From Sodiomyces alkalinus F11 (lineage: Eukaryota; Ascomycota; Sordariomycetes; Glomerellales; Plectosphaerellaceae): a DNA stretch of 64,000 nt. Position numbers and translations under genes: made by a program. Below the pieces are notes generated by a model, which saw nothing but the letters and a program-made list of their open reading frames with translations, did not search any database and was not told where the DNA came from. Below, piece after piece: positions 33,987-64,000 of this stretch. How positions within the stretch are numbered: position 1 is the first letter of the stretch; each line of letters starts with the position of its first letter. The stretch spans positions 204,898 through 268,897 of the forward strand of contig NW_021167097.1 in the NCBI RefSeq assembly GCF_003711515.1, written 5' to 3'.

Positions 33987-36191
33987 TTATACATCGACTT
34001 GGTTACCCCTATCGGGATGCTCATTCTCGTAGTAATCTTTCCACTCAGCACAGCGCTCCTCCATCTCCGTCAGCGCTCCGGCCTCCTCCATGAGGGGTAT
34101 GATCTTCGACGTCTGCTCCAGGAGCTGAATGGAAAACCCAGCGCTAGAGTGCCAGGCAATGTGGCAGTGAAGCAACCAGGCGCCGGGATTATCCACCGGG
34201 AAAGCAATCCACAAATACCCGTAGATCGGGCAGTTGGCGACATCGCGTCGAGGCGGGTTGTCCAGATTCGGAACGACGCTCTCATTGAACCGGCCCTTGC
34301 CCTGTGCCAGGACGTAGACGTCGTGTCCGTGCATATGGATGGGGTGCACCGACCGCGGAATCACGCGAGGCGGGTTTCCTATCGGCATTTCATGATTGTT
34401 CTCAATCACCAAGTACACCCACTCGCCGGTTTCAAAGTCAATGTGCATCGGCTCAGAGTCTGGTGGAAACTGCGCTTCGTCGCCCGAGTTGAGGGTGAGC
34501 CTCTTCACGCTCGGCTCTCTCCAGTCGCTGTACATGGGACCCGAACCCAGCGCCCATTTGCGGATCAGAGAGTTGGGGTCGCTCGCGTTAGGCCAGCCTT
34601 CGAGTCCAATCTTGAGATAGTCGGCGGGTTCCATGTCGTTGACGCGCCTGCCGACCTGCTTCGGCACCACGGGCACAAGCTCATCCGGACCTGGGTCGGA
34701 ACAGCCGTAGTCGAGGTGCGCTGGTGGGCCCGTGATGGGATCACTCTTGTCGCTCGAATCGTACCGCACGATGCCCACGTGCTTCTCCATAAGGTCAGGC
34801 ATGTCGCAGTAGTGCGCGTTGATCCAGAAGTTGGTGCCGTTGGCAAGGTCCGCGTTGGCCTCCACAATGATCTCGTAACGTTGACCTATGCCGATGTTGA
34901 TAACATCCGTCTCAAATGGCTCAATCTGAACGAAATCATTGGAGATGACGGTAAAGTTGTGTCCATCTATCCAGAAAGTCTCCGTGAGCAGCGAGCCGGT
35001 GTTGACGAGTCCGATCTTGTATCTGGTGCCAGGTTCAAAGGTCACATCGAACAGTTCGCCGTCGCCCGAACAGTGAGGGTCGCTTTGGGGATCGCAATCG
35101 AAAACGCCTTTGCCGTTCAGCACCATCGAGTTGGGGATGGGGGCGCGGTCAGTGAAGAATTCGCGCCAGATGAGACTGAAGGCATCATCATGATACCAGT
35201 CAGAGAGAATCCAGGGCCCAAGATCAACGTCCCAGTTTGCGCTGGAGGGCCCATGGATCACGAGTGGTCCTGTGTGTTTAGGGTAAGTAATCTATCTGTA
35301 CAAGGAAGATGATATTTAGGTCTGTGTATTACCGTATGCACCATTGCTGTCTGTCTGCAAATCAGCTTGATGGAACGAACATGGCATGGCTTCGCTGGGG
35401 AAATCTTGAGACTTACACTGCAAACCGAAATGAGAGTGGTACCATGAAGTACCATACTGTCGGGCCTGGAACTCATACACTTGCGAGGTGCCAGGCTAAC
35501 ATCTATTCGTTAGAATCACCAAAACAGCTTGCTTGACAAGTTGATGTTATGTAAGGAGCATGACACACCTTGGATGGACATTGCGTGACACCAGGTACAC
35601 CATCTTCCCAGACAGTATTCTGCTGTCGAATACCATGCCAATGAACAGCCGTGCCATTGTAATTGGTCAAATTGTTGTGAATGATGATACCTAGTTTTCG
35701 TCGGTCAGACTCGATGTTCTCAATTCCACAAGTTGAGGGCAAGAGACACGCTTACGGAGCGTATCACCCCAATCGGCCTCGATAAGGGGTCCGGGATATG
35801 TCCCTATAGAAAGTCAGAATCCTACAGGTCTCGTCCACGGCTACTTGTTGTAAGGGATTCTTGCCATTGAAAACTGTCGCATTTTTCCAATATCCATCGG
35901 GGTTGATCAGTTCGTTGCTAATGGTGAGTTCGTACTGCGATGATGAGTATACTATGCTTTCTTCAAAGACGACCCGTCCTGTGATGAGTGCCTACTCACT
36001 TCTCGCAATCTTCCCTCTGGTATTACGAAATCAGGGTCCGAATGGATGTCGATTCCCTTCTTCCAGCAGTCTCGCCTCTCCTGGCTGTGAACGCAACAAG
36101 TCGCATCAACCAGAGTCTGGTGGCCCAAGGCCAAGAACAGAGCCAAAGATTTCGTGATAGTCATTGGATTGTACGTCCACAAGATATTCAT
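33987..36191 (-). CDS. Secreted multicopper oxidase (laccase / dihydrogeodin-oxidase-like)
   Basis: Seven minus-strand exons: 36191-36000, 35934-35865, 35803-35756, 35690-35569, 35495-35417, 35350-35333 and 35269-33987. Phases close to give 603 aa with a signal peptide (TKSLALFLALGHQTLVDA). All four copper-binding blocks are present: GTAVHWHGIRQ, SWYHSHFGLQYSNG, HPIHMHGHDVYVLAQG and HCHIAWHSSAGFS, the second finished by the 18-nt exon 6. The second intron (35864-35804) begins with GC, not GT, and is needed to restore VFNG|TYPGPLIEADWGD. Enzymes of this family oxidise phenols. In geodin and trypacidin clusters a member couples dihydrogeodin or sulochrin to a spiro-grisan, which suits its place beside an emodin-type cluster. 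A general laccase role is the alternative. Confidence 0.9.
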
Positions 36192-37474
36192 GCCAAGCGA
36201 GCCCTCTATAGGTATGAACCTGCTTCCTTTTTGGAATACATATAAACATTTCTGCTTCCTATCTCACACACACCCCGGCATATGACGGGTAGGGAGATGG
36301 TGACTAACCAGGTTTATTTTCACCGAAGTCGGCTTTGCGCGGCTGGGCTGCGTCGTCGTCGGGGATCGGGCCCCGGGCCCCACGCCGAGCTTGGCTGCAT
36401 GTCCAACTCACCGAGGGCCGATCTCCGCGTGAGACACCGCCTTCCGCCTTTAGAGACGCGGAGGTGATTCTGACCAAGGATGGTCTTTGTTGATCTTGCG
36501 GCAATGTATCGCCATCCTGGCATGATAGAGTTCAGAACCACCACGTTCAACTATCGTGGGGCGTGTCCTACGAAACACAATCTTTGATGGCGTGTTTTTT
36601 TTTCTTCTTCCGGCTTGGACCGAAGGGTGTCGGTCAAGTTGCTTAATTCCGGTCTCCTCCTGTTACCTCGCCTTTATCCGCGGCCTTCTTCCATATATCG
36701 CGTCTCCGAGATACCGTTATGCACTTTGAATTTCGCCTCGCGGCTTGCCGTCGCTTGCGGAATGGTTTCTTTACAGGTTGATCAACCAGCACCAAATATC
36801 AGACTTTTTCTAAAATAAGATCAGACGTACAGTACTGGTGGAGTAAGAGGCACCTACCGACATCCGAAGACTGTTGGTGGTGTTAAGGACTAAATCCGCT
36901 ACGGCTCATTGATTTGTAAGCTCACGTACCATGGTGGCCAACAGGATCATCATGCAGGCCGCATATTCGGACCCCGAATAGCGAATAATAACACCCTGAG
37001 ACTATACACTAGAACTGTAGAAGCATGACGAGAATCGTGCAAACATGCAGGGGCAATGTACAGTGGGGGTCAGAAGTTATTGTACCTATTTATAACATCG
37101 AAAAGTAGAATAGGGCTAAATTTTAGGTATATAGTACATAGGTGTTCGTAGATGGGTACATTATGCCAGGAACTGTACGTAGCCCCTTATCCCCCCACCA
37201 AAAGAAGGACTGCTGAGACGCCCACATGTACCTATATTCAGGAGGGGCAATGTAATTACATTAACAATAGAAAAGAGGATTTCAAATAGAAAAGAGGCCA
37301 TAATAGAAAAGGGGAGGGTAGGAGAGCCAACATGTTTTAAATAGCAGGTAGACAAGATTTATTCAAAGATTGAAGATCCTCCTTTCTGCATCTCCTCCTT
37401 GATCGCATCACGCATCTCCTCGTTCAATTCTCCTAACTTAGACCGAACTTCCTGCACAAATACATTATACCAGC
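36192..37474. other. Intergenic between multicopper oxidase and GST genes
   Basis: About 1.3 kb with divergent promoters. A 12-bp direct repeat aggggcaatgta occurs at 37049-37060 and 37243-37254, flanking an insertion-like 182-bp segment that starts CAGTGGGGGTCAGAAG. Three aatagaaaag-type repeats lie at about 37263-37315. No gene supported. Confidence 0.45.
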
Positions 37475-38134
37475 ATGTCCAGCCTCAAGCCAATCAAAGT
37501 CTGGGGTAAGGGCGGCCCCAACCCCCCCAAGGTCGCCATCGTCATGGAGGAGCTTGGCTTGCCTTACGAGGTGGTTCCTGTTCCCTTCACCGATGTCAAG
37601 AAGCCCGAGTACTTGGCAATCAACCCCAATGGACGCTTGCCGGCCATCCATGACCCCAATACCGACATGACATTGTGGGAGTCTGGCGCCATTATTGAGT
37701 ACCTGGCCGAGAAGTATGACACCGACCACCGGATCAGCTTCCCCCGCGGCACGGCCGAGGCCTACGAGTCTATGCAATACCAATATTTCCAAGCCAGTGG
37801 CCAGGGGCCTTACTTTGGCCAGGCCACCTGGTTCAAGAAGTTCCACCCTGAACAGGTCCCCAGCGCCCTGGAGCGCTACATCAAGGAGATGCATCGTGTC
37901 ACGGGTGTGTTGGAGAACATCCTTGCTTCGAAGAAGGCTTCCGCTGGCCAGGATCGAACGTGGCTCGTGGGAGGAAAGTATTCGCTCGCCGATCTCTCTT
38001 TCATTTCCTGGATCAATGTCGTCACCGTCATTTTTGACAAGAGCGACTACAATCTGGAGGATTATTTGAACGTCAAGGATTGGGTAGACCGCATGCTGGA
38101 GCGGCCGGCAGTCAAGACTGCACTGGGCAAGTAG
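37475..38134 (+). CDS. Glutathione S-transferase-like protein of an anthraquinone-type cluster
   Basis: Intronless, 219 aa. The N-terminal thioredoxin-like domain (1-85) includes KVAIVMEELGLPYEVVPVPF, NPNGRLPAIHDP and the glutathione-contacting ESGAIIEYLAEKYD. The C-terminal helical domain (95-219) contains YSLADLSFISWINVV, the family's helix-capping region. It belongs to the Ure2p/GstA-like fungal group. GST-like proteins recur in monodictyphenone, geodin, trypacidin and agnestin clusters, where roles in dehydration or in handling reactive intermediates have been proposed. It converges with the SnoaL-like gene, 137 bp apart. Confidence 0.9.
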   Translation: MSSLKPIKVWGKGGPNPPKVAIVMEELGLPYEVVPVPFTDVKKPEYLAINPNGRLPAIHDPNTDMTLWESGAIIEYLAEKYDTDHRISFPRGTAEAYESMQYQYFQASGQGPYFGQATWFKKFHPEQVPSALERYIKEMHRVTGVLENILASKKASAGQDRTWLVGGKYSLADLSFISWINVVTVIFDKSDYNLEDYLNVKDWVDRMLERPAVKTALGK

Positions 38135-41683: not shown

Positions 41684-43279
41684 CTACAACTGCCGCAATG
41701 TATTTACAAGCCGAGAAGAAATGCTTCTCACCTGCTTCCGAAGATCCTCCTCTAGTTGACATAGAAATGTAGTCGAGAATGGAACACTTCCATCCGTACT
41801 GTCTTGCCTTTCCTTGACAGATGAGCTCTCTGCTCTCGTATCTATATCTTTACCGGGCCCAGTTTTGTTTGTCCTGAGCCGCTGAGACAGGGTATTCACC
41901 AGCCCCTGCACGCGGTGGAGTTTGACAAGTACAGCCTGGACGGCTAACTTAGGGTGGGGATTGTCCTCGTCGACCATCAGACGTCTCCCTTTGGTGGAGG
42001 AGGCTCCGTATAGAGAAGTCTGGGCCAGAGTTTCCGCGTCTTCCGTGGACCGACGAGCCGCATCCTCGTACCTGGCCAACGCTTTAAAGACCACCAGAGA
42101 CATGAGAGCCAGAAGGTATCTGTCCTGCTGGCAGGGCCGGGGGCACTGTAGCATGGAGCGGATTGTTTCGATGGCGTGCTCCCCGTCTGCGAACGAAGCG
42201 TTGGCTGATCCAGTAGCGAGCATCCGGTCATGACTCGACACCGAGCTCCCGGGAGACCAGGCCATGGGAGAAGTCGGAGGCGAAGTACTAGTGGCGGGTT
42301 CTTGGAAAAGTTGGCTCACCAGGCCCAGCGTTTGGGCAACGCAGGAGCACGACGGGTCGTTGATCGCTGGTCTCGAGTCGGTTTTCTGCTGCTTCTGCTC
42401 GTTTTGTCGCTGATTTTTTTCTTGTTGTTGTTGTTGTTGTTGTTGCCCCTCGTGATCTTCCTGCGGCGGTCGTTGGTGGTGATGTGGCCGTGATTGTGTC
42501 TGTGATGGTGGTGGATGGTTTCTTGTGGATGATTGAGTCGATGAGATGGATGGCATTAGTTCCAGGTCTGCTGAACCATGGAGTGTTCGTAAATCACGGC
42601 CAAGATTAAAGACTGCCTTGTCCAGTAGTTGAGTCCAGGGCATAGTAGCATCGGGAACAGGATCTGGAAGACAGCTCTGCCCGAAGAAATACTCGGCGCC
42701 ATTGCTGACATCTGATCCGTCCACCATGGACAAATCCTTAGGTGAAGGGTAGAAATCGTCAAAATTCATAATCAGCTCTCCAGGTGTTTGTAGAGCAGAA
42801 GAGCGAGATGAGGTTGTCGTCATCAGATCCGAGTTAAAATCGTCATAGTTATTGTTGGTGTACTGATCTCGGAGGACATTCACATGAATAGTAGAGCCAG
42901 CTGTTGCCGCCGCCGTTGTTGCTGGCGGTTGGCTTGTCGTCACATCGCTTTGGCTGCTTCTCTTCCACGCAGATGAACATGATTGAGCGGATTGTCCTGG
43001 AGGAGGTGCAGGTGCTGCTGAGGCTGGATTTGTTTCTGTGCTGACTTGAATGCTGCTCTTGCTTGCGTGTTTCCTACCGGCTCTCCGTGTGACAAAATAC
43101 TGGCAAGATTTGCCGCGTTTGGCACAACGAGAACATGTCGGTTTCTCTTTGGTGCACCGGAGCTTGGACGAGGCACAAGCGTGGCAGCTGTCTCTAAGCT
43201 TAACCGTCGGCGTGGTGCTATTTGTAGCATTGGAGGTGGAGGGACCGTCCGGTGTTGGCAGTATAACTGTGGGCAACAT
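41684..43279 (-). CDS. AflR-like Zn2Cys6 transcription factor, cluster regulator
   Basis: Intronless, 531 aa. The zinc binuclear cluster lies at about residues 30-60 (RDSCHACASSKLRCTKEKP, then CSRCAKRGKSCQYF), closely matching the AflR pattern and followed by the basic linker RRAGRKH. A long Ser/Thr/Gln-rich middle includes a pure poly-Gln run (about residue 280). The C-terminal half carries the AflR-domain features: CSCVAQTLGLVSQLFQ, CPRPCQQDRYLLALMSLVVFKALARYEDA and a helical end. AflR-type proteins bind TCG(N5)CGA sites to switch on polyketide clusters. Its divergent partner is an AflS-like gene 981 bp away, the same pairing as aflR/aflS and mdpE/mdpA. Confidence 0.92.
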   Translation of the reverse strand: MLPTVILPTPDGPSTSNATNSTTPTVKLRDSCHACASSKLRCTKEKPTCSRCAKRGKSCQYFVTRRAGRKHASKSSIQVSTETNPASAAPAPPPGQSAQSCSSAWKRSSQSDVTTSQPPATTAAATAGSTIHVNVLRDQYTNNNYDDFNSDLMTTTSSRSSALQTPGELIMNFDDFYPSPKDLSMVDGSDVSNGAEYFFGQSCLPDPVPDATMPWTQLLDKAVFNLGRDLRTLHGSADLELMPSISSTQSSTRNHPPPSQTQSRPHHHQRPPQEDHEGQQQQQQQQEKNQRQNEQKQQKTDSRPAINDPSCSCVAQTLGLVSQLFQEPATSTSPPTSPMAWSPGSSVSSHDRMLATGSANASFADGEHAIETIRSMLQCPRPCQQDRYLLALMSLVVFKALARYEDAARRSTEDAETLAQTSLYGASSTKGRRLMVDEDNPHPKLAVQAVLVKLHRVQGLVNTLSQRLRTNKTGPGKDIDTRAESSSVKERQDSTDGSVPFSTTFLCQLEEDLRKQVRSISSRLVNTLRQL

Positions 43280-44260
43280 GACGAACGACTGGCCACTGGA
43301 GGCGAGGATTCCTTTGGCGCACGTTGGAGCGGGGCAATGGGAAAGTTTCCAGTAAAATGTAATGACCTTTCAAGGTCACTCGAGGCCCAAACGTGATATA
43401 TACTACCTTTAGGTAGTACCGAGATACGAGACTGCCACGCGTGCGGCGTCGACCGTCTTTGGTAGTCTAATTGAAGCTATCTATGCCAGCAGATAAATGT
43501 TTCCTCCCTGCTCTCGGCCGGCCCTCGGCCCCTCGCCACGTAAGGCTGCACGGAAGTTCACTACCGGCCCATCTCGCCTCTGTATACAGTATACCTGCCT
43601 CAAATGAGATACCTGCAGAATATGGCTGCATGGCACCCTGTCCTTGCCTAGGACGCCACCCGTCTCAAATGCCACGGATAGACGAAAAGTAACAAGTTTT
43701 ACCGGGTGGGTGGCAATATAGGGTATAGTATCGCCACAACGAGTAACCGAAGGTGCTAGATTCCCTGAAATTTCCGCCCTGCAGGGGTCAGGGCTGGGCG
43801 AATCAGGACCCTTACTTACGCCCTATCAGGCGTGGACGATGATAAGGAGGGATGGAAGGCCTCCTTAGTAGGAACAAGCATTCGCATTCTGGCGGGGACA
43901 TATGCATGCAATCTTACATGCATAAGAGGGGGAAGCTTGTCTAGCCGCCCTCAATTACTTAAGGGAGTACCTTTTGCAGTGAGCTTTTCTGGACCGCTGA
44001 TGCCTCGCTTAACTCGCCTTCGCGAGTACGGAGTACGTAACGATTTCATGAGGATCTTCAAGACGAATAAGAGCAAGTTATAACTACCTACGAGTGGATA
44101 GCCTAATCGACATGGGATGAAAGCTCGATGCAAAATGTTGATGGTGAACGAGTTCTTTCTCAAATTCTTTCTTTGCATATAAGAAGTCATTGAACGGACA
44201 GCCATTCGGTGGGAACTACTAGCAATCTCAACTAACTAGTAGTAGTAGTCTCTATCTTGC
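43280..44260. promoter_or_regulatory. Divergent aflR-like/aflS-like promoter
   Basis: Shared control region of the two regulators. A near-palindromic tactacctttaggtagta lies at 43401-43418. CCGAGATACGA at 43419-43429 reads TCG(N5)CGG on the other strand, a weak fit to an AflR site. A TGCATGCAATCTTACATGCA near-repeat occurs at about 43902-43921. Confidence 0.4.
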
Positions 44261-47657: not shown

Positions 47658-50024
47658 ATGTCTATCACCACGACAACTGTGGAAGCGACAGTTGAGACGC
47701 CATTCACTTCGGGCGCCGTCAGGAGTGGCAGCAACATTGACTTCTGGCGGTCGTACATCGAATCCCGTCCAAACCCTCCGGAAGACTTCTTCCAGCTCAT
47801 CAACGAGTACCACCAAAAGCACGGAGACAACACATCCGACATTGCTCACGATGTCGGGACGGGCCCCGGAAACATTGCCGCGAGACTGGCAGCTTACTTC
47901 AAGCATGTTGTTGGTTCCGATGTGAACAGCGACGCTCTGGCGGTAGCACCGGCACTCATGCCACAGCACCTCAGCGGCAGGCTTGCCTTCATCCACTCTC
48001 CGGCCGAGGACTTGGCAGTGAAGACACCCGCAACCTCCGGAGGAAACGGAACCACCGACTTGATCACCGTCAGCGAGTGCATGCCTCTCCTCAATGCGCC
48101 CAAGGCGCTCAAGGCCTTCCATCATCTGCTTCGTCCGGGGGGTACGCTAGGCATCTACTTCTACGGACCTTGCATCTTTGCGGACGGCGATGTTGAAAAG
48201 TGCAATGCGGCATACGACAAGGTGGCCACCCGGATCTGCACCTTCAACCAGCCGATGAAGGGCACACCCGGCTTTCCCTTCCACCTCCACGCCGCAGAGA
48301 CTTTGGAGAGCTACATGGACAACATCGCCTTTCCGGCCGAAGACTGGGAGAACGTAGTTCGTCACAAGTGGAACTGCGACATGCCCCTTCTTTTCAACTC
48401 CAAGGCCGGATTCGACTTTGACTTTGGTGCGGTGGATCGCAGATCCAAGGACGAGGGGACGGAAGAGGCCATCAACCGTGACTTCTGGGGTGCAGAGTGG
48501 TCTGTTGCCGATATCAAGGCCTACCTGGACTCGGTCTATCCCAACTATCGCGACAAGGCCGGCGCCCGCTATGCCGAAGTTGAGGAACTGCTGCAAGAGC
48601 TCGATGTTGCCATGGGTGGGGAAAAGAGAAAAGTGAGCTTTCCTGTGGTGCTGCTGCTGGCGACAAAGAAAGGAGCCGTGTTCACAACCAAGCCCAAAGC
48701 TAGTCGGGTTCAGCTCTCGGCCGATTGCGGGAGCCTGGGTCGAGTCAACGAGATTCCAAGCGACGCTGTGCGAAAGACGGAAGAGCTGCTGCAGAAGAAC
48801 CACGACGAGTTTCATATTTTCTGGCGTGACCAGAACGGCCACAACCACATGGCCCACTCTCTGCTGACGACGTTTGCCATCGGGGGCGACGCTGAGGATG
48901 TGCAGCGTGCCTACGAAGACGGTTTGCCCGTGCAGCGCGCCCAGCCCGAAGCCAACCCCGAAGTGATCAAGGGACTCGCCAATGACGAAAACATGTTTGC
49001 CATCCTGGGTCAAGTTGCCCAGTATACCAATGTCATGACCTTCTTCGAGCAGCTGATGGACCAACGCGACTGGAGAGACGTACTCGACCAGTACTGCTTC
49101 AGCGGCACCAAGCTGGCCGATATCATCTTGGCTCGGATGTACGAGGGCGCCTATCATCCCATCATCCACCTAGGCCTCGGCGTGGAGTTTGAGCAGCCGA
49201 GTATCATCGCCGAAGCCCTTGCCCAGGCGATTACGCATCCGGTGTCCGGTATTCCAGACTGTCTCCTCGCCAGCTCGGAGATTGCCGACCAGGCCAACGG
49301 TGGTCGGATGGACCTGTCTCTTGTCGAGTTGTTTAACATGGCTCGAGAGAATGATATTATCTTCCGTGGTCCACGCTGGGAGGACATGACTCTCAAGATG
49401 AAGGACGGCGTCTTGGGCAGGTCAAGAGAGGCCATTGTCAGACTGGCAGCGCAGCTCCGAGTGGACCCGTGTGACATAGAGCGACGTGCCGCTGAGTCCG
49501 TCAACGGCAGCGCTTACCTCGCCGGCGCATCCCAGCGACCCGGCAAGGCAGCCAAGATTGACTTCTTCCACATGCACGCCGTCACCAGCTCCATATTCCT
49601 GACCGTCTTGGTCCGGCAGCCTTGGATTAGCCTGGAGAATAAGGTCCGCCTGGTCGAATGGAAAGGCCGTACCGATCTTTTCTGGTATGCCGCCAGCGGA
49701 TGCAGCAAGCTCGACATCCGAGAGATCAACGACTACAAGGCCGGTGCGAGCGCCGGCATGGGCTGGAGCGAACTGTACCGCAGCATCAACAAGATGCACG
49801 ACGACGGTCACGTAGCCAAGTTTGTTCGTGCGCTGAAGAGCGGCCAGGAAGTCTCTAAGCCCTTCGAGCAGGCCAACCAGGCCACTTTCCGCCTTCAGGG
49901 AGACGCCTGGTTGAATTTGGCTCGTATGGCATATGATTCTACTATCGGCCTGCCTGACGAGATTAAGTGGATTTGGGGTGCTGGATTTGCCCAGGCCTGG
50001 GGTAATGTGGCTGCCAGAGCGTAA
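47658..50024 (+). CDS. Fusion: SAM methyltransferase + questin-oxidase-like (DUF4243) protein
   Basis: One uninterrupted 788-aa frame, start at the ATG in CGTCATGTC. Residues 1-340 are a class I methyltransferase: FWRSYIESRPNPP, SAM motif I HDVGTGPGNIAARL (about 64), acidic VVGSDVN, and LLRPGGTLGIYFYGP. After a short linker (about 341-365) residues 366-788 match questin oxidase/AflY-type proteins (DUF4243): FHIFWRDQNGHNHMAHSLLT, AYHPIIHLGLGVEFEQPSII (His near 504) and IDFFHMHAVTSSIFLTVLVR (near 635). In geodin-type pathways an O-methyltransferase makes questin from emodin and questin oxidase opens ring C to desmethylsulochrin, two successive steps on separate proteins. Here both activities appear on one chain. 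Substrate and order are inferred. Both halves keep full-length domain features, so neither looks degenerate. Confidence 0.88.
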   Translation: MSITTTTVEATVETPFTSGAVRSGSNIDFWRSYIESRPNPPEDFFQLINEYHQKHGDNTSDIAHDVGTGPGNIAARLAAYFKHVVGSDVNSDALAVAPALMPQHLSGRLAFIHSPAEDLAVKTPATSGGNGTTDLITVSECMPLLNAPKALKAFHHLLRPGGTLGIYFYGPCIFADGDVEKCNAAYDKVATRICTFNQPMKGTPGFPFHLHAAETLESYMDNIAFPAEDWENVVRHKWNCDMPLLFNSKAGFDFDFGAVDRRSKDEGTEEAINRDFWGAEWSVADIKAYLDSVYPNYRDKAGARYAEVEELLQELDVAMGGEKRKVSFPVVLLLATKKGAVFTTKPKASRVQLSADCGSLGRVNEIPSDAVRKTEELLQKNHDEFHIFWRDQNGHNHMAHSLLTTFAIGGDAEDVQRAYEDGLPVQRAQPEANPEVIKGLANDENMFAILGQVAQYTNVMTFFEQLMDQRDWRDVLDQYCFSGTKLADIILARMYEGAYHPIIHLGLGVEFEQPSIIAEALAQAITHPVSGIPDCLLASSEIADQANGGRMDLSLVELFNMARENDIIFRGPRWEDMTLKMKDGVLGRSREAIVRLAAQLRVDPCDIERRAAESVNGSAYLAGASQRPGKAAKIDFFHMHAVTSSIFLTVLVRQPWISLENKVRLVEWKGRTDLFWYAASGCSKLDIREINDYKAGASAGMGWSELYRSINKMHDDGHVAKFVRALKSGQEVSKPFEQANQATFRLQGDAWLNLARMAYDSTIGLPDEIKWIWGAGFAQAWGNVAARA

Positions 50025-51451: not shown

Positions 51452-52135
51452 GTTGACTCGCTGAGACTCCAATGTTGGATTGGCAAGTGCGGGTGTCGTT
51501 TGGCAGCCCTTTTCTTTTTCTTTTTTTGGGGGGAGTTGATTGACTATGAGGAATAAGAGAATACCTAGGTAGCGAAAAAGTCGGGGCGAGGCCGTTGGAA
51601 CGGGGGCGCGCGTGTGAAAGGAGAAGCCCCGTTACATAGGCGTCGGCAAGTGTGTGTTGTACACTTCGGGTGTGTGCCTATGAATTTCATGTGGATTTTG
51701 CCAAGTTGTTACAGTGTCCGGGGTCCCCTGTGAATTGCCTTACAGGTCCACTTCGCTCACCGAACTGCATACCGTACAGGTCTTTCCTCTAAACATCCGA
51801 TGGACGATGCCCTCATACGAAGCAGCCGTCGATAATTGTCAATAAATAGCAGTCGGCCTTGTTTCGGAAGTGCGGTACTGTATTGTGCTATGCTGTGTAC
51901 CTAACCTTAGTAAGCGGCCGATATCCTAAGTCCCATCAACTACCCCGTATACATCGGACAAATGTAGCCTGCTCAGGAATCAGGTAGCTACTTAGACTCA
52001 CTCTGACGAGCACCGCCCCTCGCTCCCTTCGACTACACCAATCCTTTTCTCTTTGCCGCATAGTTACATATCTACAGTCTTTAGCAAACACACTACTGGC
52101 TGCCAGATCCAAACCGTCAACTTCCATTGTTCAAC
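51452..52135. promoter_or_regulatory. Divergent SDR/NmrA promoter
   Basis: Shared control region. TCGCTCACCGA at 51753-51763 fits TCG(N5)CGA. A T-rich tract (51509-51529) lies close to the SDR start. Confidence 0.45.
51753..51763. promoter_or_regulatory. Candidate AflR-type site TCGCTCACCGA
   Basis: Matches TCG(N5)CGA, and the spacer CTCAC fits the stricter SWNNS form (C, T, CA, C). Located in the SDR/NmrA divergent promoter. Confidence 0.45.
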
Positions 52136-52930
52136 ATGGTCTCCTATGCCATCTTAGGCGGCACAGGAAACTGCGGGTCTGGCCTGATTCAAAACCTACT
52201 CCGGTCGTCAGATGCAGACATCAACGTTTACTGCCGCAATGAAGCCAAGTTGTACGCCATGCTTCCAGAGACGGCCAACAACAAGCGCGTCAAGGTCTTC
52301 GCAGGCAGCATTCAAGACGTCAAGCTCATGGAAAATTGCATTCGGGGCACCAAGGCCGTTTTCATGACCGTCACGACAAACGACAACATCCCCGGCTGCT
52401 CCCTGAGCCAGGATACTGCCTCGAGCGTGATCCAGGCGCTGCAGAACATCAGGGCCGCTTCCCCCGATACCTTCATGGCGCCCAAGATGGTGCTGCTGAG
52501 CTCGGCCACAATCGACGACCACCTCGCTCGCCATATGCCCTTCTGGTTCCGCCCAATCATGCTGACGGCGGCTTCGCACGTGTACCGCGACTTAAGGCTC
52601 GCCGAAGAGTATCTGCGGCGCCAGGAGGACTGGGTAACAACCATCTACATCAAGCCGGGAGGTCTCTCGCTCGACATCCAGCGTGGTCATCAGCTAAACT
52701 TCGACGAGGAGGAGAGTTTCATCAGTTATTTGGACCTGTCGGCTGCTATGATTGAGGCCGCAGACGACGAGCAAGGACAGTACGATAACAGGAATGTTTC
52801 GGTAGTGAACAAAAAGCGCGGTCAGGGAGCCAAATTCCCACGGGGGACGCCAAAGTGCATCATGGTCGGCCTTTGTCGGCATTTCTTTCCATTTGCTCAT
52901 AATTGGTTGCCCAAGACGGGTCCGGCGTAG
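52136..52930 (+). CDS. NmrA-like NAD(P)-dependent reductase of the cluster
   Basis: Intronless, 264 aa from the ATG in CAACATGGTC. The dinucleotide-binding motif is [19 protein letters not shown] at the very N-terminus, followed by VYCRNEAKL and VFAGSIQD, all typical of atypical SDR/NmrA proteins. [12 protein letters not shown] and [10 protein letters not shown] follow. NmrA-like reductases accompany the PKS in monodictyphenone- and agnestin-type clusters (MdpK-like), where reduction of anthraquinone rings or quinone handling has been proposed. The C-terminus is basic and aromatic. Confidence 0.85.
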
Positions 52931-54815: not shown

Positions 54816-55557
54816 CTAAGGCGACTGCTCAACATCTACATAAATGGCATGCAGTGTGTCAATAGAGTCACGAGCCAAAAACCCAACCAGAACAGATAGA
54901 ATAATCGCAAGTATACACTGTAATGAAAACCTAGAGGAGCCAGAAGAACCAAGGTGCGGCCGGACTGAATGTGAATATGGGGAAGCCTTCTTCTCATGGA
55001 ATACAACCCCATCCTTAATCAGTTCCGTGACCCAGCCAATGGTCATCATGCTCCGCTTAGTATCGGCAAACTTCTCATGGTCGCCCTGTAAATGCTCTTT
55101 ATACCACGGGTCCTGCTTCATTCGCTTATAATCGTCCACGTTGTGGAACACGACCTGGCTGAAGCAGTCAAAGTCTGCGAGCCGCGTCATCTGGTGGTCA
55201 AAAAGCCGTGTCATAAGACTACGCGTGTCGGTAGTGTTGTGGATCTATGGCTTCTGTTAGAAAACGAAAATGGCTCGAGAAGATTAAGAGAATGCGGGTG
55301 CTTTATGCGAAAAGCAAGATGAAAGAGGAGTAAAATATAAATTGGCAATGCAAGGGAAAGACGCTCACCATCGTCCACTTTTTGACGCCATATTTCACCA
55401 TCAAGCCACTTGTCATTGGTGCCGAAACTTTAGTCATGTGGTGTCTATAGTCCTCCTCGCTCATGCCAGGTCGTCGATAGCCGCAGATGGTCAAGCAGAG
55501 GAATTGAGTGGCAGGGTCGCCAGGAGGGGCGGCGGGAATGTCTTGATCACCAGACAT
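54816..55557 (-). CDS. EthD-domain decarboxylase-like protein with C-terminal membrane anchor
   Basis: Exons 55557-55369 and 55244-54816 with a 124-nt intron (GTGAGC...CCATAG), 205 aa. The EthD fold is seen in [60 protein letters not shown] and [20 protein letters not shown]. Relatives such as TpcK/GedI and MdpH-type proteins decarboxylate atrochrysone carboxylic acid. The extra C-terminal stretch ([18 protein letters not shown]) is a single hydrophobic helix near the end, giving a tail-anchored topology that would hold the enzyme beside the membrane-bound anthrone oxygenase. An upstream ATG at 55704 is in frame but adds an unlikely 49-residue leader. Confidence 0.82.
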
Positions 55558-56028: not shown

Positions 56029-57077
56029 TTAGGCCGCAACATCGACTGCATACCACTTCCTCTCCTTCTCCCCCCGTCGGACCTGAAAACCAACCCGATA
56101 GTCCCCCGCCAACTTGCGGAGTACCTCATCAATAAAGGGCTCCAATGCCAAGGTCCTCGTGCTCTCGTCTAGCGATTCGCCGTAGATCTCCGTCACAATC
56201 TCCTTGACAGTGACAGTCCTCGAGCCATGAGTCCCAAGGCTCCTCAGCGCCTGCATGACCTGCCTTTCTCGTTTCAATCTGCTCCCCAACTCTCTGTCTA
56301 TCTTGGCCGGCAGGTCCCTTATGGTGATTCCGTGCGCAGGATACCCGATGGTGCAATGTTGATCGTCCATTTTCTGCAAGCTGTTCATGAACGTGCCCAG
56401 GTCTTCTGCCACGCTGGTTCCGTGACCGAGAACATTGTCACCTGTGAACATGGCATTCTCTTCCTCGAGTATGAAGCACATGTGATCCTCCGAGTGTCCA
56501 GGGACATGGAGAGCCCGGACAGTCGCACCTTCAACCCGGAACACCTGACCATCGTAGATGTCCTGCTGGCCATACTCTGCCTCGTTCTTGTAAATGGAGT
56601 CACCCAGATGTGGATAGAGTCGGAGCAGGTCCGGTACGCCGCCGGTATGATCTCCATGCCAATGGGTCAGTAGCACGTGGGAAAGTCTGATGCCCATCTG
56701 TTGCAGTGTAGATGAGATCAGTTCAGCCCAAGCCGGTTCCCCTCCGCCCGTATCCACAATAAGTCGATGACTTCCGGTTCCGACGACATAGGTGTTTGTC
56801 CCTTGATAGGTGAACTGCGCCAAAGTGTGAGCAAGAAATATGTTTGTCGAAGCACAGCGTAGTAAAAGTGTGACAGTGAATATTATACCTTTCCCGGGTT
56901 CTGGCCCAATATGCGTAGGACGCGAGGAGTGAGCTGTTCGACGTCTGGGAGATTGGGAAGATTTGCTGTCTGGCCGTTGAGATAGTCTTCGAATGCACAG
57001 ATATTCAGGGACTTGTTGATCTTTCTGTAGCCGCCCTTGTCGGCAAGCATGACTTCGATGTCTGTTGTGTGTTTCAT
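56029..57077 (-). CDS. Metallo-beta-lactamase-type thioesterase (atrochrysone carboxyl ACP thioesterase-like)
   Basis: Exons 57077-56889 and 56814-56029, intron 74 nt (GTATAA...GCGCAG), 324 aa. The join restores ILGQNPGK|FTYQGTNTYVVGTG, the conserved start of the domain. The metal-binding motif is LLTHWHGDHTGGVPDLL, with further ligands in LHVPGHSEDHMCF, MFTGDNVLGHG and GYPAHG. In MdpF, ACTE, GedB-type proteins this domain releases the polyketide from a PKS that lacks its own thioesterase. It is divergent from exactly such a PKS, with a 1.06-kb shared promoter. The second exon alone begins with an in-frame ATG and could be misread as a separate start. Confidence 0.92.
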
Positions 57078-58136
57078 TTTATGTCTTGTCGACTTCGTCC
57101 AATCCGCACAATATTGAAAAACGGGAGTGAGTGCCTAATCCAGGCAGTAGTATTGATTCTTTTCAAGATTTTGCAGCATGTAATCAAGCGATGAGCAAGA
57201 AGTATGTCGAATATGGCAAGTCGAGGTTCATACCATCCATGCTCGCAGAAACCATGTAGACTACCTCGCATGGAACGCTGTGGGAACTGAAATGGAGACG
57301 GGTAATCTCTTGACTGCTCGGATAAGTGAAAACATTCCTTGGTGAGCTTCAGTCTTAGACCCGTCAAGTTCGGAGTCCGATGCGACCGCCCTAAGTTCTG
57401 AAGTTCACATGGCATGGCGACGTCCATGCATCTAGCGGCTAACCGGCCATACTTTTTCTTTCATTATACTTCCGGCGAGGACTTCTTACAACCTCTTGAT
57501 AGTAGGAAATCCCGAATCGGCCTACAAGGCATCCGGTCAGAAGTCACATCATGCTCGGGCGCGGTGTATTTGCGTACACCGTAGTCACCGACACCCGGCC
57601 ACCACTTCAAGAGTCGGAGTAACACTCTAACTTGACCGACACGGGGTTTCGGGAAAGCCAGTATCAGTGTCTAATGTAGACACAGAGCACAGAGTCCGGT
57701 CTCTTGCAAACAATACGCAGAAGACACTCAGGTCTGATCCACCCCACTAGTCCCGTCTCTGGCCTCTAGCACCGATATCATTGTACAACCACTGCCGAGG
57801 CGGCAGGTCGCTTATGTTCCTTCACCGAACATAAGGTAATAACTTAAGCATAATTGCATGTATTTAATGTATATACAAGAGCTCCTCTTCCGCATTTATC
57901 AAGTTCCAAAGTCCCGACAATAGTCTCAGCCGCGGAAACGAAGCGTCCCACACCCTATCGAGATTCGACACGAATCCTCCCAACTAGAGCCCTTGTCCGG
58001 ATCTTGAAGTGTACTCGCGCAAAGTTGTTTCGTTGAGCTGGGCACGTGCTAAGACCCAAAATCCTCCACATTTATTCATTCTTTGATTGATTCGCCCTTT
58101 TACTCCTGGCGCTCACTATATCCCCCGCCGCCCGCC
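57078..58136. promoter_or_regulatory. Divergent thioesterase/PKS promoter
   Basis: Shared control region of the two genes that must act together. TCGGAGTCCGA (57370-57380) is a full match to the AflR consensus TCGSWNNSCGR. Confidence 0.5.
57370..57380. promoter_or_regulatory. Candidate AflR site TCGGAGTCCGA
   Basis: Perfectly palindromic half-sites, spacer GAGTC fits SWNNS. It sits about 290 bp upstream of the thioesterase start and 757 bp upstream of the PKS start. Confidence 0.5.
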
Positions 58137-61100
58137 ATGGCCATCTACTCTTCCAAGACACCATCATGGAGTGATCTTGGTAGCGATATATGCAAAAAAA
58201 TGAGTTTCATGTACTTCAACAACGACTTCCCTAGTGGTAGTGTACAAGATCAGTTACGCCATCTACACAACCATAGCAAGGACAACAACCACCCAGTACT
58301 AGCTCGATTCATTGCTGAAGCGACGCGGGTGATCAAGGAAGAGATCCAGTGTCTGCCGACGGAGCTGAAGACCTTGATTCTGCCGTTTAACAACGTCTTC
58401 AGCTGGGCCGAGAATGAAAATCTTCGAGAGGGTCTTGTTTGTGGTGCGGTCGAGGGAGTTCTTCTCGTCACACTTCAACTCGCAGCGTACATTGGGTAAG
58501 TGTCATGATGCATCTTCATCGCGGGCTCTCTTAAGTTCCATTGCTTGTTTTTCCTTTCTACTATAACTAACTCTCATTGAAAGCTATCTCGAAAAGAACC
58601 CGGCCGATTTGCGTGATGCCTCCGCCTCCGGGCTCTGTGGATTGGGCGTTGGCCTGCTGTCCTCCACGGCCGTCTCTTTGTCACCCACGGTGTGTGAGCT
58701 GGCGGTGGCTGGTGCGGACGCGGTCCGATTGGCATTCCGCTTAGGCATTCATGTCATTGGAGTCTCAGAGAATCTTGAAGCCAGAGACATGTCAGAAAAG
58801 CCCGATACTTGGGCGTATGTGGTGCATCGTATCGATCCGGCCGAAGTGCAGAATGAGCTCGACTCCATCAACACGCGGTCCAATACCCCAAGTACCGGCA
58901 AGATCTTTGTCAGCGCTGTCAGTCCCACCTCGGTGACAATCAGCGGACCCCCTTCGACACTGAAGAAGCTGTTCAGCAAGTCCGAGTTCTTCCGCAAGGC
59001 AAGGTCCATGCCTTTGCCCGTATACGGAGGCCTCTGCCACGCCCCCCACGTCTATGGTCGCGAGGATATGCAGAGCATCGTCTACGGCAGCCAACTAAGC
59101 ACTGTCACCGCCAAAACTGTGCCTCTGATTCCGGTGTACTCAACGAGCACCGGACTCCCATATTCGGCAGCCGATGCCGGTGCTCTCTTCGAGTGCGTCG
59201 TCTCCGAGCTGCTCGAGAAGGCAATTCACTGGCATCAAACCGTTGGCGGTCTCGTCAACCGTATCAAGCGGATGGGAGCGGAAGATGTGACGTTCCATTG
59301 TTTCGGGAACTCCCTCCCCCTGAACGATCTTACTGCCCAGGTGAAATCTGCCCTTCAAGAAGCAGAAGCGGCAGACTCGGAAGTCTCCATTAATGACTTG
59401 ACATCCTGGATAGACCAAGCTGCGCCGGCTGCTTCTGTTCCCCGCAGCCCAGGCCAATCCAAGCTCGCCGTCGTGGGCATGTCGTGCAGGCTTCCAGGCG
59501 GCGCGACTAGCAACGAAAAGTTCTGGGAGATTCTCGAGAAGGGCCTGGATGTCTCTCGCCAGATTCCCGCGGATCGTTTTGACATCAGCACGCACTACGA
59601 CCCAGAGGGCAAGCAGATTAACAAGACCATGACGCAGTACGGCTGTTTCATCGACGAGCCTGGCATGTTTGACGCTCCTTTCTTCAACATGTCCCCTCGC
59701 GAGGCGCAGGTCGTAGACCCCCAAATGCGGCTTGCTCTGGTCACGGCATACGAGGCGTTGGAACAGGCCGGCTTTGTTCCCAACCGCACCCCGTCCACGC
59801 AGTTGAATCGTATCGGCACGTACTATGGCCAGGCAGCCGACGACTACCGCGAAGTGAACCAGGGTCAGGAAGTCAACACCTACTATATTCCCGGTGGGTG
59901 CCGGGCTTTTGGTCCTGGTCGAATCAACTACTTCTTCAAGTTTGCCGGTCCGAGTTATAGCATCGACACGGCCTGCTCTTCGGGGCTTGCGGCAATTCAG
60001 GTATGTGCAGTCATTGACTACCTTTGAAACACCACACTATATCCAAGACACATGTTAATATCATCGTCTATTAGGTTGCCTGTCAGGCTCTCTGGTCTGG
60101 TGACATCGATATGGCCGTCACCGGTGGTGTCAATGTCCTGACTAACCCGGACGGATTCGCCGGCTTGTGCAATGGTCACTTCCTCACCAAGGGCCCCAAC
60201 GCATGCAAAACCTGGGATGCCACGGCCGATGGGTACTGTCGAGCAGACGGTATCGGGTCCCTGGTAATCAAGAGGCTTGAAGACGCCGAGGCGGATAACG
60301 ACAACATCCTCGGGGTTATCCTGGGTGCCGGGACCAACCATTCCGCCGAGGCCGTGTCTATTACCCATCCTCATGCAGGCCATCAATCTGATCTCTCTCG
60401 TCAGGTCCTCCGGCAGGCGGGTGTCAACCCGTTGGATGTGTCCTATGTCGAGCTGCACGGGACAGGCACCCAGGCGGGAGACTTTGAGGAGCTGCAGGGC
60501 ATCATGGACGTGTACGCGCCTCTGACCAAAGCTCGCAGCAAAGATAAGCCCCTTTACATCGGCGCCGTCAAGGCCAACGTGGGACATGGAGAATCTGTTG
60601 CCGGCACGACGGCGCTGATCAAGGTGTTGCTCATGTTGCAGAAGAACGCCATCCCGCCACACGTCGGCATCAAGACCGAGATCAACCCTCGTTTCCCGCG
60701 GGACTTTGACCAGCGTAATCTTCACATTCCTCTTGAAATGACCGACTGGACGCCTGTGGGAGGTAGGAAGCGGCTCGCTGCGGTGAATAACTTTGGTGCC
60801 GCCGGTGGCAATACGACTGTGGTCCTCGAGGAAGCGCCGACGCGCCTGGCCACGGAGCCGGACCCGAGACAGACCCACGTCGTCGCCGTATCGGCAAAGA
60901 ACAAGGTCTCTCTGGCTGGAAACATTAAGTCCTTGATTGGCTATCTCGAAGATCACCCCGATACCAACCTCAGCAACCTCTCTTACACTACAACTGCACG
61001 CCGGTACCAGCACACACATCGCATCGCCCCCATTTGCTCGAGTGTAGATCAACTGAAGAAGCAACTGACAACGAGTCTTGACGGCATCGAATCCATCCGC

Positions 61101-63766
61101 CCGGTTTCCAAGTCGGGCCCGCAGTCCATCGCCTTCGCCTTTACAGGCCAGGGAGCTTCCTATCAATCCATGAGCCTCGAGTTGTATCAGCATGTTCCCG
61201 TCTTCCGCCAGACCATTGACCGCCTCGACGCTCTCGCACAGCGGCAAGGATTCCCCTCTTTCATTCTCGCACTGGATGGATCGCATGGCAAAGACCACGA
61301 ACACTCGCCCGTGGTTACGCAGCTCGCCTTGGTCAGCACCGAGATTGCCCTCGCCAAGTACTGGGCTTCGCTTGGTGTCCAACCAGACGTCGTCGTCGGC
61401 CACAGCCTGGGTGAATACGCGGCGATGCACGTAGCTGGCGTCCTCACCGCCAGCGATGCCCTGTTCATGGTCGGTCGTAGGGCCGAGATGATGCAGAAAA
61501 AGTGCACAAGAGGCAGCCACTGCATGATGGCTGTCCGAGCCTCCTTGAGGCAAATCGCCGTCGCCGCACCGAACGAGCGGTACACCATCGCCTGCATCAA
61601 CAGTCCTTCCGATACAGTCCTCAGCGGTACAACCCAGGAAGTGGACCGTGTCGCCAGTGTCCTCGAGGCAGCTGGCTTCCGGTGTATTAAGCTGTCCGTC
61701 GCCTATGCTTTCCACTCGGAGCAGGTCGACCCTCTCCTCGATGATTTCGAAGCCATTTGCAAGACCGCCGTCCGTTTCCAGGAGCCCAAGATTCCCTATA
61801 TCTCGCCGCTACTCGGCAAGGTCGTCTTCGACGGTAAGACGCTAAATGCCAACTACTGCCGTCGCGCAACGAGAGAACCAGTCGACTTTGTATCCGCCCT
61901 GGGGAACGCCCAGAACGTTTCTACTATCAGCGCCGAGGACACGGTCTGGATCGAGATTGGTCCTCATCCCGTGTGCACCGCCTTCGTCAAGTCCACCATT
62001 CCGTCGACTCTGCTTGCCCTGCCCTCTATTCATCGCACCCAAGATAACCTGAAGACGATTGCTGAGAGCATGGCTGCCTTGCATCTTGTTGGGGTCAAGG
62101 TCTCGTGGACCGAGTTCCATCACCCCTTTGAGAACCGACTTCGACTGCTTGATCTACCCACCTATTCGTGGAACGAGAAGAACTACTGGCTTCAGTATAA
62201 CGGCGATTGGTGCTTGACGAAAGGAAACACGTTCTATGGCACTCAACAGACTATCGGAGCCAAGCTTGGGTCCTCGCCCCCGAGTCGTCTCCAAACGTCG
62301 ACGGTCCATGAGATTATCGAGGAGACATCTGACAACTCTGGCTGTTCACTCGTTATCCAGTCCAATCTCATGCAGTCTGATTTCTATGCTGCAGCATACG
62401 GACATCGAATGAACGACTGCGGCGTTGTTACATCGGTAAGTTTTTGGACGAAAAACAGGAAAACATTAACGTGGCTAACACATCACAGTCTATCCACGCT
62501 GATATCGCCTTTACCCTCGGCGACTACCTCCACAGAAACCTCCTTCACCTTACGGGTAACATGGCCGACATGAACATTGCGAACCTAGTCGTCTCAAAGG
62601 GTCTCGTCGCCAACAGCGATACTTCATCGCCTCAGCTGATTCGAGTGACCGCAACCACAGCCGACACGAAATCCGGCGCAGTCGACTTGACATGGCAGAA
62701 CGTAGCCAACGATGGCACTGCATCGGAGCCATTCGCCACGGCCAACATCTTGTTTGGCGATGCAAGCGAATGGCTCGCATCGTGGAGTCCTCTGACGCAC
62801 CTCATCCAGGGCCGCATCGAGGCACTCGAGCGCATGGCTGCTGAAGGAAAAGCTAGTCGCTTCTCTCGCAACATGGCCTATACCCTCTTCGCCAGCAACC
62901 TGGTCGACTACGCTGACAAGTATCGCGGCATGCACTCCGTCGTGATGCACGAGCTTGAAGGTTTCGCGGACATCCAACTCACCAGCAAAGAAAGCGGCGT
63001 CTGGACCGTGCCGCCCTACTTCATCGACAGCGTGGCCCATCTTGCCGGGTTTATCATGAACTGCTCCGACTCGATGGACTGCAAGAACAACTACTGCGTG
63101 ACTCCCGGCTGGAAGACAATGCGTTTCGCGAAGCCGCTACTGCCTGGCGCCAAGTACCGTTCTTACGTTAAGATGATCCCAACCGTTCAGGATCCGACCG
63201 TCTACTTTGGCGATGTGTACATCATGCAAAACGACGAGATTATCGGCATGGTTGGCGGCATCCAGTTCCGCAGCTTCCCACGCATTTTGCTCAGTCGTTT
63301 CTTCTCGCCACCAGATAAGAACGGCGCACATGGCACCAAAGGGAAGACACAGACCACCAAGTCCTCCCCGCACACAACCGTGGCTAAGGCCAGACATGAC
63401 GATGCTGTGAGCAAGCCATCACCGCCTGTCAAGGCCACAGCGACTACAACGCCACCACTCCCTTCACAGTCTGCATCTGGCACACCCAGTGAACCCTCTG
63501 CCACCTCACCCTCCGCCGCCACTATAGGAGCTCAGAGCGACAGCCTGGCCGACAAGGCGTTGCAAATCATTGCGAGAGAGGCAGCCATGGAGGTCGCTAG
63601 CTTAGAGGACGATGCCAGCTTTGATAGCCTGGGCATTGACAGTCTTATGTCACTGGTCATAGTGGAAAAACTAAAGATAGAGCTTGATGTAAAGGTAGGG
63701 GGTAGTCTTTTCCTCGACTACCCAACTATTGGGAATTTTAAGCAGTGGCTATTAGATATAGCGTAG
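58137..63766 (+). CDS. Non-reducing polyketide synthase SAT-KS-AT-PT-ACP without thioesterase
   Basis: Exons 58137-58495, 58584-60000, 60075-62435 and 62489-63766; phases agree and give 1804 aa. Starter-unit ACP transacylase: Cys near 138 in GLCGLG. KS: Cys near 584 in DTACSSG, His near 720 ([11 protein letters not shown]) and 763 (KANVGHGES). AT: Ser near 1036 in GHSLGEYAA. Product template: His near 1369 ([10 protein letters not shown], split from SSIHADIA by an intron) and Asp near 1559 (FIDSVAH). After a Ser/Thr/Pro linker comes one ACP, Ser near 1764 in LGIDSLMSL. No TE, CLC or reductase follows. This is the layout of atrochrysone carboxylic acid synthases (ACAS, MdpG, GedC, TpcC), which need the separate beta-lactamase-type thioesterase next door. 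The start has an ideal GCCATGG context. The last roughly 120 coding bases change composition (see findings). Confidence 0.95.
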
Positions 63767-63905: not shown

Positions 63906-64000
63906 GGTTAGGGTTAGGGTTAGGGTTAGGGTTAGGGTTAGGGTTAGGGTTAGGGTTAGGGTTAGGGTTAGGGTTAGGGTTAGGGTTAGGGTTAGGGTTA
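63906..64000 (+). repeat. Telomere, (TTAGGG)n
   Basis: About 15 exact TTAGGG units to the window edge, G-rich strand running 5'->3' outward, as at a right chromosome end. No interruption or degenerate copy is seen. Confidence 0.98.

What the first reader, a model, noticed from the sequence alone, without database searches (positions are those of the whole stretch)
47658..50024. Methyltransferase fused to a questin-oxidase-like ring-cleavage domain in one 788-aa protein
A class I methyltransferase (motif I HDVGTGPG) and a complete DUF4243/questin-oxidase-like domain (HLGLGVEF, DFFHMH) are encoded in one intron-free frame. In geodin- and trypacidin-type pathways methylation of emodin and Baeyer-Villiger-type ring opening of questin are consecutive steps by separate proteins. 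The fusion suggests a two-step enzyme that passes questin directly between sites. The methyltransferase half also looks like the Tmt1/UbiE-like class rather than the PF00891 O-methyltransferases usual in these clusters. I do not recall a described fusion of this kind.
Basis: partly seen in the sequence, partly recalled or inferred. Interest (0 to 1): 0.88.

Follow-up and report, generated by a model that had tools for sequence, protein, structure and literature searches.

The report
Fused methyltransferase and anthraquinone-cleaving dioxygenase
A fungus related to Sodiomyces carries one gene that joins a methyl-adding enzyme to an enzyme that breaks open anthraquinone rings; the join is real and shared with other fungi, but it may well cap the newly opened acid rather than methylate the ring beforehand, as first suggested.

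Summary
Window 47658-50024 (+) is one intron-free 788-codon frame: residues ~12-338 a class I SAM methyltransferase (MT), residues ~353-788 a complete questin-oxidase-like (PF14027) ring-cleaving dioxygenase (RCDO). Nearest solved relatives are AflY and BTG13 (RCDO half) and yeast Tmt1 (MT half). The same fusion is in 23 other proteins, among them named Sordariomycetes, Leotiomycetes and Dothideomycetes; they group together in the RCDO tree (24 with the window) and the MT tree (23 placed). Twelve also carry a C-terminal SDR. A reversed fusion and one with another MT subfamily fall elsewhere. The subtelomeric cluster is geodin/trypacidin-like; no other PF13649 or PF00891 methyltransferase match lies on the contig.

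A reductase step lies between questin and the RCDO, so "passes questin directly" is unlikely. Cleavage and esterification of the new carboxylate are consecutive steps, and the MT is Tmt1-like. Against this, the MT is not of the GedG type, and its closest named relative, PtaI, is assigned in a review, by elimination, to emodin O-methylation. The order stays open (about 0.5 against 0.27). It is a new domain architecture of known enzymes.

The parts
47658..50024 (+). fused MT-RCDO gene, 788 aa, single exon
   Evidence: ORF and translation; full-length homologues; two domains by Pfam
47691..48671 (+). Tmt1-like class I SAM methyltransferase domain (about residues 12-338); motif I HDVGTGPG 64-71, acidic D88
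48672..48713 (+). linker, residues 339-352; the free MTs looked at end at the same LATKK/R and the free RCDOs looked at begin in the xSRVQLS-like region that follows
   Evidence: 5 free MTs and 5 free RCDOs printed; pLDDT < 50 at 341-344; 7 of 14 residues identical to S. alcalophilus against 93-94% in the domains
48714..50021 (+). questin-oxidase-like ring-cleaving dioxygenase domain (residues 353-788) with conserved H395, H397, H400, H500, H504, H640, H718, K721
52085..52927 (+). NAD_binding_10/NmrA-like reductase, candidate for the GedF-type anthraquinone reductase
   Evidence: Pfam; 59% identical over 223 aa to the N-terminal part of the NmrA-RCDO protein P0027
50471..51631 (-). short-chain dehydrogenase, distant from the SDR fused in P0007-like proteins
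   Evidence: Pfam adh_short; against the C-terminal parts of 12 tri-domain proteins at best 20-27% over stretches of about 100-120 aa
53823..54383 (+). anthrone oxidase
   Evidence: PF08592 E=4.4e-22
55059..55473 (-). EthD-type decarboxylase, exon pieces
   Evidence: PF07110 on two ORF pieces, one over the cut-off (41.2 bits), one just under it (19.9 against 22)
56032..57078 (-). metallo-beta-lactamase thioesterase
   Evidence: PF00753 E=1.6e-19
58053..63763 (+). non-reducing PKS in several ORF pieces: SAT, KS, AT, ACP; no thioesterase match
   Evidence: Pfam on four ORF pieces; SAT also
41687..43369 (-). AflR-like Zn2Cys6 regulator
   Evidence: PF08493, PF00172
40006..41547 (+). GMC oxidoreductase, cluster membership uncertain
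   Evidence: Pfam
37442..38131 (+). glutathione S-transferase (geodin/trypacidin clusters have gedE/tpcF)
   Evidence: Pfam
33990..35291 (-). multicopper oxidase piece (candidate dihydrogeodin-oxidase-like enzyme)
   Evidence: PF07731, PF00394
63908..64000 (+). telomere repeat TTAGGG; end of contig and of window

Best explanation
The gene encodes a bifunctional enzyme of a geodin/trypacidin-type pathway. A separate NADPH reductase (most likely 52085-52927) reduces the emodin-type anthraquinone to its hydroquinone. The C-terminal RCDO domain cleaves the central ring with O2 to a benzophenone carboxylic acid. The N-terminal Tmt1-like methyltransferase then esterifies that new carboxylate, which would fix the open form. 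Shown here: one continuous frame, two complete and conserved domains, an inherited fusion, the cluster, and no second PF13649 or PF00891 match on the contig. Inferred: activities, order, and any direct transfer between the sites.
Against: The MT is not of the presumed GedG/TpcM type: 25-33% local identity, and that group stands apart at 100/100. [quoted passage not shown] this rests on elimination, but it speaks against this reading. The review also reports labelling in another pathway (shamixanthone) that excluded a free acid and favoured a lactone. The model gives no reliable domain-domain arrangement (pTM 0.69), so channeling is untested. Three single-domain MT rows (P0121, P0122, P0155) lie inside the fused MT clade, so the MT half may have been lost or split off, or these are partial models. 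P0021, P0027, P0091, P0234 and P0235 could be merged gene models.
Confidence: 0.5

Rival explanations
1. Methylation first: the MT half is a PtaI-type phenol O-methyltransferase that makes physcion (or questin) from emodin; the reductase then acts, and the RCDO half cleaves. This is, but without direct hand-over.
For: P0164, named ptaI by UniRef, is 55% identical to the MT half and lies inside the same MT family; the review assigns PtaI to emodin -> physcion.
Against: The assignment is by elimination; the reductase intervenes, so a fusion of steps 1 and 3 has less point; Tmt1-like fold; GedA, the emodin O-methyltransferase of the geodin pathway, is of another size class (53.6 kDa).
Confidence: 0.27
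2. Methylation of a phenol of the ring-opened benzophenone, after cleavage.
For: Fits both the PtaI kinship and the adjacency of steps; the review gives TpcH such a step on sulochrin.
Against: I saw no report of a member of this MT subfamily doing it; no direct evidence.
Confidence: 0.12
3. The two halves work independently and are joined only for equal expression or stability, in whichever order the steps come (a separate axis, so this number does not add to the others).
For: The linker is short, variable and of low confidence; unfused MT and RCDO genes sit on one contig in at least 9 other cases.
Against: The fusion is found across three classes, and other arrangements exist, which suggests more than convenience but does not prove channeling.
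Confidence: 0.4
4. Artefact: two genes joined by an assembly or sequencing error, or a gene split at RNA level.
For: None found; transcripts were not available.
Against: Same fusion in other species and genera, no internal start for the RCDO, continuous coding composition.
Confidence: 0.02

Closest known systems
Geodin/trypacidin pathway enzymes GedK/TpcI (RCDO) with GedF/TpcG reductase and GedG/TpcM carboxyl methyltransferase
   Same: PF14027-type RCDO, NmrA-like reductase gene, class I MT, NR-PKS, MbL-TE, EthD piece, anthrone oxidase, GST, multicopper oxidase and AflR in one region
   Different: RCDO and MT are one protein; MT subfamily is PtaI-like, not the presumed GedG type; no PF00891 match on the contig
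PtaI and PtaJ of the pestheic acid cluster of Pestalotiopsis fici
   Same: PtaI (P0164) is 55% identical to the MT half and about as long (339 aa)
   Different: PtaI is a separate protein; its function is assigned by elimination
BTG13, AflY and PaD (solved questin-oxidase-like dioxygenases)
   Same: The RCDO half aligns over ~440 residues at rmsd 1.3-1.8 A; the eight His/Lys positions examined are kept in the window-type RCDOs
   Different: Their chains (444-473 aa) are too short to hold an MT domain as well
Yeast Tmt1, trans-aconitate 3-methyltransferase (3g5t)
   Different: 21% identity; substrate is a small tricarboxylate (recalled); single domain of 299 aa
MinC of minimycin biosynthesis (HAD phosphatase plus DUF4243)
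   Same: Another DUF4243 domain joined to a second enzyme (passage in PMC8724604)
   Different: Bacterial, other partner, other chemistry

Membership tests
Questin oxidase-like family (PF14027) / ring-cleaving dioxygenases | Profile match over curated cut-off, full length | tested here: met
   314.9 bits against 27, profile 2-340 of 340
Questin oxidase-like family (PF14027) / ring-cleaving dioxygenases | Fold of BTG13/AflY | tested here: met
Questin oxidase-like family (PF14027) / ring-cleaving dioxygenases | Conserved His/Lys residues (BTG13 H58 = H400 and K377 = K721 by alignment; that K377 is a carboxylated iron ligand is recalled) | tested here: met
Questin oxidase-like family (PF14027) / ring-cleaving dioxygenases | Oxidative cleavage of an anthraquinone hydroquinone | not testable with these tools
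   needs an assay
Class I SAM methyltransferase, Tmt1-like | Profile match, motif I and acidic residue | tested here: met
   PF13649, PF08242, PF08241 over cut-offs; G67, G69, G71, D88 kept in 21 of 21 rows of A1 with letters there, 1 of 22 has gaps
Class I SAM methyltransferase, Tmt1-like | Methyl transfer to a carboxylate | not testable with these tools
   needs an assay
GedG/TpcM carboxyl methyltransferase subfamily | Groups with GedG/TpcM-type MTs | tested here: not met
   P0091/P0233/P0234/P0235 stand apart at 100/100; they represent the GedG type by gene order only, GedG itself was not available
PtaI-type methyltransferase | Groups with PtaI (P0164) | tested here: met
   55% identity, same family in trees, though in a different clade from the fused rows
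PF00891 O-methyltransferases (that GedA/TpcA belong here is recalled) | PF00891 match | tested here: not met
   No PF00891 row for the protein at E<=1; 0 of 8 genome matches on the contig
Geodin/trypacidin-like (group V NR-PKS) cluster | TE-less NR-PKS, MbL-TE, anthrone oxidase, EthD decarboxylase, reductase, RCDO, MCO, AflR | tested here: met
   Pfam run on 40 of the 132 ORF pieces of 110 codons or more; no product-template match in the PKS pieces scanned
Geodin/trypacidin cluster proper | Separate emodin O-methyltransferase in the cluster | tested here: not met
   No PF00891 match and no second PF13649 match on the contig, which ends in the telomere; other MT families and other contigs not excluded

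The most novel reading that the evidence does not exclude
Fungi of three classes have turned the reductase - ring cleavage - methylation segment of emodin-type pathways into joined enzymes more than once and in different arrangements (MT-RCDO, RCDO-MT, NmrA-RCDO, MT-RCDO-SDR). The window enzyme is a cleave-and-cap catalyst that hands the benzophenone acid straight to an esterifying site.
Probability: 0.35. Interest if true: 0.66.

Novelty: new variant of a known kind. Interest (0 to 1): 0.5.

Why it matters
In the review I read in part, the methyltransferases of these pathways, PtaI included, are assigned largely by comparison and elimination. A natural fusion names two partners that belong together and gives a single protein on which the order of methylation and ring cleavage can be assayed. 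If cleavage and esterification are coupled, it would show how a pathway steers the opened ring away from lactone or acid side products, and it offers a ready-made bifunctional catalyst and a marker for finding such clusters.

Tried and rejected
Rejected: assembly or reading-frame artefact; membership in PF00891; direct questin hand-over as likely. That the window SDR is the unfused form of the SDR in the tri-domain proteins: best matches 20-27% over ~100-120 aa, P0007 only an 11-residue match, so not supported.

Looked for and not found: a paper describing the fusion. ('questin oxidase' + methyltransferase + fusion): 0 papers; 0. Searches (15 of 23 listed; 40 of 230; 20 of 577; 10 of 10; 3 of 3; 9 of 10; 25 of 1,130): titles and abstract starts listed name no such fusion; most of the large sets were not listed. 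DUF4243 passages in PMC5635595, PMC11149221, PMC5640708, PMC8724604 name none with an MT. The library holds open-licence papers only. A database name 'putative DUF4243 and methyltransferase domain protein' is on two Rosellinia entries (P0180, P0183), which are 336-337 aa and in our domain scan MT only, so an annotator has probably seen a joined protein.

Not resolved: no hit listed is named as an A. terreus or A. fumigatus protein, so GedG, TpcM, GedK and TpcI were not available for comparison, and their absence says nothing.

Papers seen: PMC9890505 passages plus its section 3.1 whole; PMC4591646 passages plus its section 3.1.3 whole; PMC3751827, PMC5611617, PMC9495618 passages (the last has no emodin-type match). 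The primary work on GedF/GedK and the BTG13 paper were not seen. A family missing from the Foldseek and VIA lists is not thereby excluded.

Limits: relatives of this eukaryote genome could not be searched for gene neighbourhoods. Tree rows dropped: of 138 MT rows, 7 under 230 aa (P0024 among them) and then 31 far rows, leaving 100; none of 121 RCDO rows. The finer MT tree used 54 chosen rows. P0091 has a very long branch in the MT tree.

Full report

The sites look intact. Eight His/Lys positions of the RCDO (H395, H397, H400, H500, H504, H640, H718, K721) are identical in 22 of 22 rows of alignment A1 (21 fused proteins plus the window) and in 95 of 95 RCDO rows without MT. H400 aligns with BTG13 H58, the residue changed in 7y3x, and K721 with BTG13 K377; that K377 is a carboxylated iron ligand is recalled. 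MT motif I glycines and D88 are kept in 21 of 21 rows with letters there.

The fusion is real and inherited. Of 233 proteins examined (232 hits plus the window), 26 hold both domains: 24 of the window type (window included), P0091 in the same order but with another MT, and P0021 in reversed order. The window type includes named genomes of Sodiomyces alcalophilus (93% identical), Lecanicillium, Metarhizium brunneum (named HypA), Stipitochalara, Neocucurbitaria (two), Phaeosphaeriaceae sp. and Lachnellula; the taxonomy of five was looked up and gives Sordariomycetes, Leotiomycetes and Dothideomycetes. In the RCDO tree the 24 form one clade (SH-aLRT 100) that holds one further row, P0025, whose first ~30 residues are the start of the MT, so it is probably the same gene with the MT lost in gene prediction. 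In the MT tree 23 of them (P0024 was too short to place) form one clade (100) that also holds three single-domain rows, P0121, P0122 and P0155; these may be partial models, losses or splits. A finer tree of 54 chosen rows, without those three, gives 11 of 11 fused rows as one clade (100/99). Twelve of the 24 carry a C-terminal SDR (Pfam column; lengths 924-1208 aa). The five free MTs printed end at LATKK/R, where the linker of the fused proteins begins, and the five free RCDOs printed begin in the region that follows it. Between the two Sodiomyces proteins the domains are 93-94% identical and the linker 50%.

Other fusions lie elsewhere. P0021 has the order RCDO-MT and groups with unfused rows in both trees. 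P0091 joins an RCDO from another clade to an MT of a different subfamily (25% identical to the window MT). A search with that MT found three others: P0234 and P0235, Aspergillus lentulus and A. pseudoviridinutans models in which it is joined to an anthrone oxidase, and P0233. Because gedG is listed next to gedH, the anthrone oxidase, in the geodin cluster (table passage of PMC3751827), I read this subfamily as the GedG/TpcM type; the GedG sequence itself was not at hand. P0027 of Delitschia joins an NmrA-like reductase, 59% identical to the window gene at 52085-52927, to an RCDO. Each of these may be a merged gene model.

Unfused partners are neighbours.

Setting. The window ends in TTAGGG repeats at the end of contig C19, so the cluster is subtelomeric and nothing lies beyond the PKS. 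Of 40 ORF pieces scanned with Pfam (of 132 of 110 codons or more), 18 match a family; they include NR-PKS domains (SAT, KS, AT, ACP), a metallo-beta-lactamase thioesterase, an anthrone oxidase, EthD pieces, an NmrA-like reductase, an SDR, an AflR regulator, a GST, a GMC oxidoreductase and a multicopper oxidase. That is much of the geodin/trypacidin set in PMC4591646 (section 3.1.3) and PMC9890505 (table passage). No PF00891 match is on the contig (0 of 8 genome matches) and the fused MT is the only PF13649 match there (1 of 29); other MT families were not searched genome-wide. The genome has two other RCDO loci, on C3 and C1; the window MT has no close second copy (next best 28%).

How it most likely works. 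The review reports that cleavage needs a reductase and a dioxygenase: GedF reduces questin to its hydroquinone and GedK cleaves it to desmethylsulochrin, an acid; GedG/TpcM, assigned by comparison, then make the ester. Cleavage and esterification are true neighbours, ring opening can also lead to a lactone, and the MT has the fold of a carboxyl methyltransferase. Two results stand against this. The MT groups with PtaI, not with the presumed GedG type, and the review gives PtaI to emodin -> physcion by elimination while giving PtaH the ester. In another pathway labelling excluded a free acid. I therefore put cleave-then-esterify at about 0.5, methylate-first at 0.27 and methylation of a phenol after cleavage at 0.12. 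Whether intermediates pass directly is a separate, untested question.

Novelty. The domains and the pathway are known. I found no description of the joined architecture in the papers I could search, although a database name implies that annotators have met it (P0180, P0183). I rate it a new variant of a known kind.

Noticed in passing
P0007, P0008, P0009 and nine proteins without organism name: Tri-domain MT-RCDO-SDR proteins of 924-1208 aa; the SDR is distant from the unfused one in the window at 50471-51631.
   Followed up: partly
P0027 (Delitschia), window 52085-52927: NmrA-like reductase fused to an RCDO; its reductase part is 59% identical to the window's separate reductase gene, and an MT of the window family (P0132) is on a contig of the same length.
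   Followed up: partly
   Followed up: partly
P0091, P0233, P0234, P0235: A second MT subfamily (probably GedG/TpcM type) appears joined to an RCDO, to a ~400-residue N-terminal part without a Pfam match, and to anthrone oxidases; some may be merged gene models.
   Followed up: partly
P0025; P0121, P0122, P0155: Rows inside the fused clades that lack one half: P0025 keeps only the first ~30 residues of the MT before its RCDO; three MTs have no RCDO. Losses, splits or partial models were not told apart.
   Followed up: partly
window 63908-64000: Contig ends in telomere repeats; the PKS is the last gene before the contig end.
   Followed up: yes
G000:C3:894634-895656 and G000:C1:5507023-5507984: Two further questin-oxidase-like loci without a window-type MT match beside them; SAT matches are on C2, C12 and C19 only.
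   Followed up: partly
window 1-33000: Left part with a TauD dioxygenase (5636-6718), an alpha/beta hydrolase (18192-19211), an Fe/Mn superoxide dismutase (20198-20863) and an APH-type kinase (28256-29485); a 935-codon open frame at 1-2805 (-) has no Pfam match.
   Followed up: no
[quoted passage not shown]
   Followed up: partly
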